From NCBI GenBank assembly GCA_028868695.1, contig JAGWTZ010000027.1:1-40966 (forward strand): a DNA stretch of 40,966 nucleotides, given 5' to 3'. Shown in pieces: positions 11,625 through 27,964 of the stretch. The notes beneath the pieces are model-generated. The model ran no database searches, was not told the DNA's origin, and saw nothing but the letters and a program-made list of their open reading frames with translations. The stretch comes from Alphaproteobacteria bacterium. GTDB lineage: Bacteria > Pseudomonadota > Alphaproteobacteria > Rhizobiales > Aestuariivirgaceae. Numbering within the stretch: the first letter of the stretch is position 1; the number at the start of each line of letters is the position of its first letter. Made by a program: the position numbers and the translations under genes.

Positions 11625-11683
11625 CGGCGCAATTCTGACCCAACGCTCTGGCTGGCCAAGGGAGGGCTTCTCTCTGGGCGCAG

Positions 11684-11711
11684 CCTTGTGCCTTTGTCAG
11701 GCACGGCAAGG
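11684..11711 (+). other. Leader hairpin upstream of rpsM
   Basis: CCTT-GTGCCT (11684-11693) can pair with AGGCAC (11699-11704) and AAGG (11708-11711), leaving a 5-base loop and a 3-base bulge. It falls inside the presumed rpsM leader. In E. coli, S4 regulates the alpha operon through a leader structure; whether this hairpin has a related role cannot be told from the sequence. No T run follows, so it is not an intrinsic terminator. Confidence 0.4.
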
Positions 11712-11770
11712 TGATGTTGGTTTTGATTTCAGTCAGTGGTGCAAGCCATTGATTTTATGAGGAGAATAAA

Positions 11771-12139
11771 GTGGCCCGTATTGCAGGCGTAAACATTCCA
11801 ACTGGCAAGCGCGTTGAAATCGCGCTGCGCTACATCAACGGCATTGGCCCGAAGAATTCGAAGATCATCTGTGATGAAGTGAAGATTCCCGCCGCCAAGC
11901 GCGTGAATGAGCTTTCGGACGCCGAAATTCTCGCCATCCGCGAAATCATCGACCGTGACTACACCGTGGAAGGCGACCTTCGCCGCGAAATCGCCGTCAA
12001 CATCAAGCGTTTGACCGACCTGGGCTGCTACCGCGGCCTGCGCCACCGCAAGGGCCTGCCGGTTCGCGGCCAGCGCACCCACACCAACGCCCGTACCCGC
12101 AAGGGGCCTGCCAAGGCCATCGCCGGCAAGAAGAAGTAA
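11771..12139 (+). CDS. rpsM: Small ribosomal subunit protein S13 (GTG start)
   Basis: 122 residues. The start is GTG at 11771, 7 bases after a strong AGGAG (11759-11763 region: GAGGAGAA), and gives the normal [26 protein letters not shown]-terminus. S13 lies at the top of the 30S head and contacts P-site t[28 protein letters not shown] near the C-terminus is diagnostic. First gene of the alpha group, 194 bases after adk. Confidence 0.97.
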
Positions 12140-25578: not shown

Positions 25579-25718
25579 GGCGCAAGGCCGCTCATTTGCC
25601 GCAGAAACTGCAACCGCTTGTCCTGCTCCCGGACGGCGAGCTGCCGCGCAAGCGGCTGAGGGGCGATGGTTTCAGCATCCCAACTGCCACCCTCATCTCC
25701 CCACCGGCGCGTGCCGCG

Positions 25719-25745
25719 CCACCTCCCCCTCAGGGGAGGAGGTGG
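25719..25745. repeat. REP-like palindrome with 8-bp arms
   Basis: CCACCTCC (25719-25726) and GGAGGTGG (25738-25745) are exact complements, with CCCCT/AGGGG pairing also possible inside. This CCACCTCCCC...GGGGAGGTGG form is a common dispersed intergenic palindrome in alphaproteobacteria. It lies 140 bases after the propeller gene and directly before the promoter-like sequence of the structured segment; no T run follows. Confidence 0.5.
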
Positions 25746-25757
25746 ACGGGAGCAGAT

Positions 25758-25788
25758 TTGACTTGCTTTTATTCCTAACATGTGCTAG
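25758..25788 (+). promoter_or_regulatory. Candidate promoter of the structured RNA segment
   Basis: TTGACT (25758-25763) followed by TGC, and TGCTAG (25783-25788), spaced by 19 bases; a TG two bases before TGCTAG gives an extended -10 look. The spacing is long for sigma-70, but TTGACTTGC is a strong -35 region. Transcription would start close to 25795, exactly where the self-complementary sequence begins. Confidence 0.45.
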
Positions 25789-26204
25789 CTGCCTTCCGCT
25801 CCCTTTCACTGGGGTCCGGTTCATGACGGTGAACCCGGATGCAAGGGGGCGGCAGGCCTGCTGGCAGCGCAGACGTAGCGCACCGCCACCGGGAGCCAGG
25901 TTGAACTTCCTCGGGCACTAAGACCCGGGCTGCTATGGCAAGGCCTCTGGTGTCCCCCATCAGGCTTCCTCCGTGTAGGAAGTGAGATGGATCACCTCGG
26001 GTGGAGGGAATCTCCCATCAAGATGGGAGAAACCCGGGGAAACCCAAGACCCATAGGGGCGGACTGACAGTTCACCTGATGCTCAATTCCTGCCGGCGCG
26101 TGGGGCAACCCAACGCATCAGTAATGCGACTTTAAACACAGTCGCACCCGCGTGAGTTACCCCACGCGTCTCCCTTCTACCTTCTGCCCCGTACGCCACG
26201 GGGC
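25789..26204 (+). ncRNA. Candidate structured noncoding RNA of unknown family
   Basis: About 415 bases with no convincing reading frame but dense complementarity. Stems seen: CTGCC/GGCAG (25789-25793 with 25851-25855) enclosing CCCTT/AAGGG (25801-25805, 25843-25847) and TCCGGTTC/GAACCCGGA (25815-25822, 25831-25839); CTGGTG/CATCAG (25947-25952, 25958-25963); CTTCCT/AGGAAG (25965-25970, 25977-25982); CTCCCATC/GATGGGAG (26012-26019, 26022-26029); TGCGACT/AGTCGCA (26125-26131, 26140-26146); CGCGTG/CACGCG (26149-26154, 26163-26168); GCCCCGT/ACGGGGC (26186-26192, 26198-26204). A promoter-like sequence precedes it. I find no RNase P core, tmRNA tag or TPsiC arm, SRP tetraloop region, 6S pattern or common riboswitch core. 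Ends are approximate and the strand is inferred from the promoter. Confidence 0.5.
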
Positions 26205-26262
26205 AACCAAGGGAAGAGCCATGACCAAATCCAACCCACCCACCTCCGTCATCCCCCTAACT

Positions 26263-26402
26263 CCGTCACCCCTGCGAAGGCAGGGGCCCAGCTAGGCCGC
26301 ACACTCCGCATGCCGCCCAAGCGGGATTCCGGCTCGCAGACTTCGCCACGATTGCCTTGCAATCGCGGCCGGGCTTCGCCCGGTCCTTGGCCGGAATGAC
26401 GG
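26263..26402. repeat. Palindromic intergenic repeat element with CCGTCA/TGACGG ends
   Basis: A 140-bp unit bounded by inverted CCGTCA (26263-26268) and TGACGG (26397-26402). Inside are three perfect small stems: CCCCTGC-GAAG-GCAGGGG (26269-26286), CGATTGC-CTT-GCAATCG (26349-26365) and CCGGGC-TTC-GCCCGG (26369-26383). The outer CGTCACCCC...CCGGAATGACG form is that of dispersed REP/MITE-like elements common between genes of alphaproteobacteria. No open frame of its own. A second CCGTCA lies at 26246-26251. Confidence 0.6.
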
Positions 26403-26565
26403 CGGTACGGTGCGGAGCCCGGTGGCGGCGGGCGAGTTGGGGCGCGTGGCCGGAATGACGGCTGGATAGGGTGAGGCCGGGTGATGACGGTCGAGTGGGG
26501 CGCATTCCGGAATGACGGCGGGAGAGGGTGGGGCCGGGTGAGGATCGGCGAGTTGCGGTGCTTGG
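26391..26565. repeat. Three tandem imperfect repeats of 57-59 bp
   Basis: Copies at 26391-26449, 26450-26506 and 26507-26565. Each begins CCGGAATGACGGC and contains a GGCCGGGTG-like middle and a (G)CGAGTTG/TCGAGTG stretch near its end; they differ at many other positions, so the duplication is not recent. The first copy begins inside the end of the palindromic element, suggesting that the element's right end was amplified. Confidence 0.6.
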
Positions 26566-26611
26566 CCGGTCCGCAACCCAGCAAGCCCGAGGCAGATCAA
26601 ACATTTGATGA

Positions 26612-27964
<1,353 letters not shown>

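What the first reader, a model, noticed from the sequence alone, without database searches (positions are those of the whole stretch)
25758..26204. Unassigned structured RNA candidate between the propeller gene and eno
Seen: after a promoter-like TTGACT/TGCTAG pair, about 415 bases contain at least seven strong stems, several perfect (CTCCCATC/GATGGGAG, TGCGACT/AGTCGCA, GCCCCGT/ACGGGGC), with no protein-like frame. Known families were compared by eye: the RNase P core, tmRNA tag and TPsiC arm, SRP RNA core, 6S and common riboswitch cores are absent. Inference: a large independently transcribed RNA gene, or remains of a mobile RNA element. It could still be a divergent known family I could not recognise.
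Basis: partly seen in the sequence, partly recalled or inferred. Interest (0 to 1): 0.7.

Follow-up and report, generated by a model that had tools for sequence, protein, structure and literature searches.

The report
Dispersed large structured RNA gene family
The stretch is one of many scattered copies of a large, intricately folded RNA found in one order of bacteria; it matches no catalogued RNA family, its folds are preserved by matching mutations on both sides of its stems, and what it does is not yet known.

Summary
Region 25758-26222 is one copy of a dispersed repeat: the window's genome holds 14 to 18 copies of this class (8 full, 10 fragments at contig ends) plus 4 of a diverged second class. 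Rfam 15 gives no match; RNase P and tmRNA lie elsewhere. Stems change between copies by paired substitutions, and G-U wobbles outnumber A-C mismatches on the + strand, so the conserved object is most likely a + strand RNA of about 430 nt. Covariance models find it in 28 of 37 genomes of its genus, which includes Aestuariivirga litoralis, in 9 other genomes (nine genera) of a 297-genome sample of the order, and in no other genome of a 289-genome class sample. Copies are intergenic and mosaic; most sites differ between species, some (upstream of lepA) recur. Some copies carry a perfect GTTC-N7-GTTC LexA-type box over the promoter, the operator type that precedes recA in 29 of 30 loci; the window copy does not. 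Transcription and function are untested.

The parts
25762..25790 (+). Promoter-like stretch: CTTGCT, 17 nt, CTAGCT; the spacer holds the family motif TTCCTA (25772-25777) and a degenerate LexA-like pair ATTC-N7-GTGC (25771-25785)
Evidence: Aligned with relatives; 2 mismatches to GTTC-N7-GTTC. The sigma-70 scan found 0 sites.
25779..26222 (+). Element / proposed RNA body; stretch aligned in the 8 full copies of this genome
   Evidence: consensus structure
25787..25862 (+). Helix P1 (25787-25807/25841-25862) carrying hairpin 25814-25824/25829-25840 around the conserved loop GACGG
   Evidence: P1 exists as two sequence types that keep most pairs (94.1% of cells) across 8 copies; 29-sequence alignment
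25863..25887 (+). Hairpin with ACGUA loop region (stems 25863-25865/25885-25887 and 25867-25872/25876-25881); three compensated variants gcgc, gggata, ggtgta
   Evidence: helix 1 of A2
25910..25929 (+). Hairpin CTCGGG-CACTAAGA-CCCGGG; loop consensus YACUAMGR (by eye) conserved to other genera
   Evidence: Helix 2 of A2: 97.8% of cells paired, 6 of 6 pairs with double changes; does not vary among the 8 own copies
25957..25990 (+). Middle hairpin 25957-25971/25975-25990
   Evidence: helix 12: one pair is CG in 4 and UA in 4 of 8 copies
26006..26035 (+). Variable insert hairpin CTCCCATC/GATGGGAG; different or shorter in other copies
   Evidence: (I3)
26097..26168 (+). 3' domain: long stem 26097-26116/26150-26168 enclosing hairpin GCGACT/AGTCGC (26126-26131/26140-26145; GCCACT/AGTGGC in other copies)
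   Evidence: (I2)
26172..26213 (+). Terminal stem CCCTT/AAGGG enclosing hairpin 26185-26191/26199-26205 (GCCCCG/CGGGGC or GGTTTCG/CGAAGCC)
   Evidence: helices 17, 18
26209..26226 (+). 3' tail AAGGGAAGAGCC-ATG-ACC, resembling a ribosome site plus start codon; last conserved bases of the element
   Evidence: no shared open frame follows

Best explanation
Window 25779-26222 is a gene for a roughly 430-nt structured RNA, read on the + strand from a promoter at about 25762-25790. It belongs to a multicopy, dispersed RNA gene family of Hyphomicrobiales that is absent from Rfam 15. Shown by computation: many copies, paired substitutions in stems, strand-biased wobble pairs, mostly intergenic position, exchange of modules between copies, recurrence of some sites and decay at others, and perfect LexA-type boxes in a subset. 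Inferred: each copy is transcribed from its own promoter; copies with a LexA box are induced by DNA damage; the RNA works in trans as a folded molecule, probably with a protein partner or as an RNA assembly, and not as the leader of the downstream gene; copies multiply within genomes and exchange modules by recombination or conversion. Rough estimates for the parts: real structured RNA family 0.9; dispersed spreading family 0.85; SOS control of a subset 0.5; trans-acting RNA-level function and not purely selfish spread 0.5.
For: Copies: 18 places in the own genome. Covariation: A2, 45 distinct core sequences, 91.4% of cells paired (71.0% shuffled), 15 of 18 pairs with double changes (11.3 shuffled), covariation score 0.595 against 0.204 shuffled and at most 0.196 slid; A3, 8 full copies, 97.9% paired (94.8% shuffled), 15 of 140 pairs with double changes (8.0 shuffled). 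Strand: G-U 139 and A-C 19 cells in A2, 74 and 8 in A3. Distribution: 28 of 37 genus genomes; 16 of 297 in the order, 7 of them of the genus and 9 in nine other genera; none besides the own genome in 289 of the class. Not a leader: the next gene is on the opposite strand in 16 of 43 copies and neighbours are mostly unrelated. SOS: perfect boxes in 13 of 100 upstream rows (10 distinct loci) against 0.04% of mononucleotide-shuffled rows; the same operator type upstream of recA in 29 of 30 loci.
Against: No transcript data. The sigma-70 scan finds no promoter and no terminator in 25580-26690. On single sequences the minus strand folds slightly better. The structures were predicted from the same + strand sequences, which favours them and the G-U counts; in A3 the number of further pair types does not exceed shuffles (36 against 36.0). 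The shuffles do not keep relatedness. The window copy's LexA-like site has 2 mismatches, a level that 14% of shuffled rows have as their best. Ten of the 18 own places lie at contig ends, so some mosaics in this draft could be misjoins. One of the 8 full copies (C74) lacks the upstream promoter stretch. Hits outside the genus are weaker (37 to 73 bits), and four of the nine genomes have a single weak hit that was not examined.
Confidence: 0.62

Rival explanations
1. A non-autonomous mobile DNA element (MITE- or REP-like) whose hairpins are signals for a transposase or recombinase acting on single-stranded DNA; the RNA reading is secondary.
For: Multicopy, dispersed, sporadic between genera; neighbours other repeats in this genome; similar copies with differing flanks; an SOS-type operator in some copies, which is common on mobile elements (general knowledge).
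Against: No terminal inverted repeat or target duplication seen by eye, though not tested systematically; wobble bias towards one strand; longer and more branched than REPs; promoter-like stretch in most copies seen with their 5' end; no match in phages or plasmids and no confirmed viral contig.
Confidence: 0.2
2. A cis-acting leader (riboswitch or attenuator) of the downstream genes, ending in a ribosome site and start codon.
For: 3' tail AAGG..ATG looks like a ribosome site; copies upstream of eno, aspS, an ABC-F gene and lepA on the same strand (genes named by eye from their translations); in L102 the frame found after the tail has 296 codons.
Against: Next gene on the opposite strand in 16 of 43 copies; the frames that the script found after the tail run from 3 to 296 codons and look unrelated; in the window about 460 nt lie between the element and eno; downstream genes share no evident function.
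Confidence: 0.07
3. A translated element: class II copies hold a ribosome site, start codon and an open frame of 89-157 codons, so the family encodes a small protein and class I is its decayed form.
For: Frame from the AGGAGGGG-ATG open for 89-157 codons in the 15 loci that the script's pattern caught (copy L301 was not caught).
Against: Substitutions fall evenly on codon positions (193, 179, 187 in 885 codon comparisons within the own genome; 2915, 2610, 2790 in 7356 over 13 loci); no NCBIfam or Pfam family for the 2 proteins tried; in L214 the frame differs by eye and in L215 another frame is longer; class I lacks the frame although its stems are conserved.
Confidence: 0.06
4. A divergent member of a known RNA family missed by Rfam models.
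For: Large multi-helix RNA; size near that of RNase P and tmRNA.
Against: No Rfam match for the window region or for the element in 13 related loci; RNase P and tmRNA found elsewhere, one hit each; 18 to 22 copies in this genome suit neither.
Confidence: 0.05

Closest known systems
Large structured bacterial RNAs of unknown or partly known function (OLE, GOLLD, ROOL)
   Same: Hundreds of nucleotides, many conserved stems (general knowledge and abstract starts in the listing)
   Different: No Rfam match; here 18 to 22 dispersed copies in the window's genome (14-18 of this class plus 4), with exchanged modules, in Hyphomicrobiales, without hits in phages or plasmids
REP/MITE/RIME-type intergenic repeats
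   Same: Dispersed, intergenic, palindromic, multicopy
   Different: About 430 nt with a multi-branch structure, strand-biased wobble pairs and a promoter-like stretch; no terminal repeats or target duplications seen by eye
SOS-controlled small RNAs and LexA regulon genes of Alphaproteobacteria
   Same: GTTC-N7-GTTC over the promoter in a subset; same operator type before recA
   Different: Most copies examined, the window's included, lack a perfect box; RNA much larger than typical base-pairing sRNAs (general knowledge)
RNase P RNA and alpha-type tmRNA
   Same: Similar length, complex fold
   Different: One hit each elsewhere in this genome; the element matches neither model

Membership tests
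Any Rfam 15 family (4227 models) | Score at or above a family's gathering threshold | tested here: not met
   window: only Alpha_RBS at 11680-11803; 25600-26700, E up to 10: 8 sub-threshold hits; 13 related loci, E up to 0.01: a neighbouring tRNA and one sub-threshold overlap with it
RNase P RNA (RF00010) | Covariance model match | tested here: not met
   The genome's single hit is G000:C7:19985-20376, 295.4 bits, not this element
Alpha tmRNA (RF01849) | Covariance model match; tRNA-like domain and tag | tested here: not met
   The genome's single hit is G000:C72:16282-16713; ARAGORN 0 genes in the window
OLE / GOLLD / ROOL | Match to their Rfam models | tested here: not met
   No match; that these families are among the 4227 models is recalled, not listed in a call
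Cis-regulatory leader / riboswitch | Constant association with a downstream gene class on the same strand | tested here: not met
   27 of 43 same strand, 16 of 43 opposite; neighbours mostly unrelated (crude frame caller)
Cis-regulatory leader / riboswitch | Ligand- or signal-dependent switching | not testable with these tools
   Needs experiment
DNA transposon / MITE | Terminal inverted repeats and target-site duplication | tested here: inconclusive
   None seen by eye; no empty site resolved to the nucleotide
LexA regulon member | Perfect GTTC-N7-GTTC over the promoter | tested here: inconclusive
   Perfect box in 10 distinct loci, among them own class II copies L238 and L241, two of the ten (L200, L235) with the box elsewhere; not in the window copy; regulation not measured
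Structured non-coding RNA | Compensatory substitutions beyond shuffled and slid controls | tested here: met
   (controls do not keep relatedness or were derived from the same sequences)
Structured non-coding RNA | Transcript | not testable with these tools
   No RNA-seq on hand
Protein-coding gene | Third-position bias of substitutions | tested here: not met
   Class II frames

The most novel reading that the evidence does not exclude
A bacterial counterpart of a SINE: a promoter-bearing, damage-inducible, non-coding RNA element that copies itself to new intergenic sites with the help of proteins encoded elsewhere, and whose copies keep exchanging hairpin modules so that each genome carries a mixed repertoire of RNAs.
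Probability: 0.2. Interest if true: 0.9.

Novelty: new variant of a known kind. Interest (0 to 1): 0.66.

Why it matters
Large structured bacterial RNAs are few, and several have long resisted functional assignment (general knowledge). This one appears in about twenty dispersed copies in the window's genome, with exchangeable hairpin modules and, in part of the family, a LexA-type operator. That gives natural variation for dissecting structure, a testable link to DNA damage and a cultured relative (Aestuariivirga litoralis). If it spreads by itself it would be a new type of bacterial RNA element; if it is a host RNA, its copy number and mosaicism need explaining.

Tried and rejected
Rfam at gathering and permissive thresholds: nothing for the element. 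Phages and plasmids by blastn: no match. Viral contigs by four exact patterns: 0, 0, 0 and 3 stretches, the 3 not confirmed by model R2 at E up to 10. I ran the nhmmer profile on those 80 only: 14 matched at E up to 1 and the other 66 were dropped as chance. Of the 33 not listed, L158, L159, L160 and L180 showed the element when a motif script went over all held loci; the rest were not examined further.

A TGGATCACCTC stretch (25988-25998) equal to the 16S rRNA 3' end (16S end recalled, no call) drew attention, but it is absent from L024 and other relatives printed, and was set aside. Group I and II intron cores were considered from memory; no Rfam support. A closing pairing of the element's ends (ATGTGCT/AGCCAT; its 6 pairs are inside the 140 counted) is not claimed, because its 5' strand overlaps the predicted -10. 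The class II frame was tested and not supported as coding. A role tied to eno was tested: model R2 hits upstream of eno in 2 of 30 loci; by eye L350 and L354 have ends like L211 there, which R2 does not confirm. An attempt to read eno upstream regions with a strict pattern failed for 28 of 30 loci and was repeated with a looser one (28 of 30 read). Literature: only search listings, titles and abstract starts were seen, lists were capped (for example 12 of 123), and no paper was read; none of the listed titles describes such a family.

Full report
What was found. The 447-base stretch folds better than all 100 dinucleotide shuffles on either strand. Rfam 15 finds nothing here at gathering scores, and only sub-threshold hits with E from 0.62 when E up to 10 is allowed.

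It is a repeat. A search with 473 bases against the window's own genome (3.09 Mb, 101 contigs) gives 18 places at E up to 0.001. Eight are full or nearly full length; the seven others are 80-94% identical to the window copy. Four places hold only the 5' part and six only the 3' part, all ten at or within 6 bases of a contig end, so the number of distinct copies lies between 14 and 18. A further four places form a second, diverged class that the models find but the first search does not (G000:C65, C43, C44 and C7:69515).

Structure. In the alignment of copies whole hairpins differ but remain paired, for instance GGGATAACGTATCCC, GGTGTATCGTGCACC and GCGCAGACGTAGCGC; GCGACT/AGTCGC and GCCACT/AGTGGC; GCCCCG/CGGGGC and GGTTTCG/CGAAGCC. 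On 8 full copies the consensus (RNAalifold; 140 pairs, 18 helices) has 97.9% of cells paired and 15 pairs with changes on both sides, against 8.0 (sd 1.8) in shuffles and at most 4 with slid partners; the count of further pair types does not exceed shuffles (36 against 36.0). On 45 distinct core sequences of several genera 15 of 18 pairs have double changes (11.3 in shuffles, 8 to 12 slid) and the covariation score is 0.595 against 0.204 shuffled and at most 0.196 slid. The shuffles do not keep relatedness and the structures were derived from these sequences, so these are strong indications and not probabilities. G-U cells outnumber A-C cells 139 to 19 and 74 to 8, which points to the + strand RNA, with the caveat that the structures were predicted on that strand.

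Distribution. A nucleotide search over 61 genomes matched 16, all of the same genus. Model R1 (29 sequences, all from this genus) matches 28 of 37 genomes of the genus at E up to 0.001, with 17 matches in G005 and 16 in the window's genome, and 16 of 397 sampled in the order. Model R2 (46 sequences) matches 16 of 297 genomes of the order: 7 of this genus and 9 in nine other genera. Of those nine, G194, G266 and G297 contributed one sequence each to R2; G038 (4 matches) and G173 (8) did not; G051, G094, G291 and G321 have one weak hit each, not examined further. G266 has 12 listed matches. Only up to 12 candidates per genome were scored, so counts are lower bounds. In a 289-genome sample of the class only the own genome matched, under stricter filters. 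The core shared by the R2 sequences has a stem with an ACGUA-like loop and a hairpin with loop YACUAMGR (consensus by eye). The genus includes Aestuariivirga litoralis KCTC 52945: locus L192 of G018 lies inside the record NZ_QKVK01000002.1 fetched as L111. No match was found in plasmids or phages and none confirmed in viral contigs.

Position and history. For 43 copies with enough flank a crude frame caller places the element between predicted genes; in 5 of the 43 a low-scoring frame overlaps it. The next gene is on the same strand in 27 and on the opposite strand in 16. Among the neighbours of these 43, three pairs matched: eno in G000 and G027, upstream genes of G005 and G038 (33% identical), and a short match between two own copies. 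Upstream of lepA 6 of 30 loci hold a copy, five like class I, one of them shortened, and one (G034) like class II; by eye two more (L406, L410) hold fragments. Upstream of eno 2 of 30 loci hold a copy by model R2. So some sites are inherited or reused and some copies decay, while most sites in this set differ between species. No terminal repeat or target duplication was seen by eye.

Mosaic copies. Six variable features in the own genome combine freely: of 15 pairs of features, 10 show every possible combination (for example P1 type with ACGUA-hairpin type, 6 of 6; inner hairpin with 3' hairpin, 4 of 4) and 5 show 3 of 4. Because this draft breaks at the repeat, some combinations may be misjoins, but by eye the same kind of reshuffling is visible in G027, which has 4 contigs.

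Promoter and SOS. Many relatives share CTTGAC(A/T), 16-17 nt with TTCCTA, CTATNN or a variant upstream of the RNA. A perfect GTTC-N7-GTTC occurs in 13 of 100 upstream rows against 0.04% of mononucleotide-shuffled rows. The 100 rows contain near-duplicates; the 13 come from 10 distinct loci (L009, L014, L024, L027, L075, L193 with its probable duplicate L159, L200, L235, L238, L241), two of which (L200, L235) have the box away from the usual place. L238 and L241 are own class II copies. The reverse complement of the box, GAAC-N7-GAAC, stands 159-174 bases before the RecA motif used as anchor in 29 of 30 genus loci, so it is the likely LexA operator. The window copy has 2 mismatches, which is not beyond chance. 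In class II copies and in several G005 copies an inverted repeat of the type TTCCT..AGGAA lies at the promoter (by eye), which hints at another regulator.

Class II frame. In the 15 class II or related loci caught by the pattern the frame after AGGAGGGG-ATG stays open for 89-157 codons, but substitutions do not favour third positions and no protein family matches the 2 proteins tried.

Interpretation. The best reading is a family of large structured RNA genes that multiplies within genomes, whose copies exchange hairpins, and that is in part under DNA-damage control. What the RNA does is inferred only in outline: a folded trans-acting RNA, not a leader of the neighbouring gene and not RNase P or tmRNA, which are elsewhere. 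The main gap is transcription, which could not be tested here. The literature searches (capped listings only) showed no title that describes it.

Noticed in passing
window 11680-11803: Alpha operon ribosome binding site (RF00140), 49.1 bits, the only Rfam gathering hit in the window.
   Followed up: no
window 26391-26569: Three direct repeats of about 63 nt starting CCGGAATGACGGC next to the RNA element; similar repeat units lie beside many of its copies in this genome, by eye in inverted orientation on the two sides.
   Followed up: partly
L238-L241, L297-L306: Second class of the RNA with AGGAGGGG-ATG near the 5' end, CCCCTCC downstream that could pair with it, and an open frame that ends near the same place in many copies although codon positions evolve evenly.
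   Followed up: partly
L219, L220, L222, L223, L224 (other genera): Upstream of the RNA in other genera a different shared stretch, ATCCCCG..AACCTCCC or similar before a TATAAT-like box.
   Followed up: no
L403, L404, L405, L409, L412, L414: Copies upstream of lepA in six species, five like class I and one like class II, suggesting an inherited or recurrent site.
   Followed up: partly
window 25988-25998: TGGATCACCTC, equal to the 16S rRNA 3' end (recalled), present in the own class I copies that cover it but not in relatives such as L024.
   Followed up: partly
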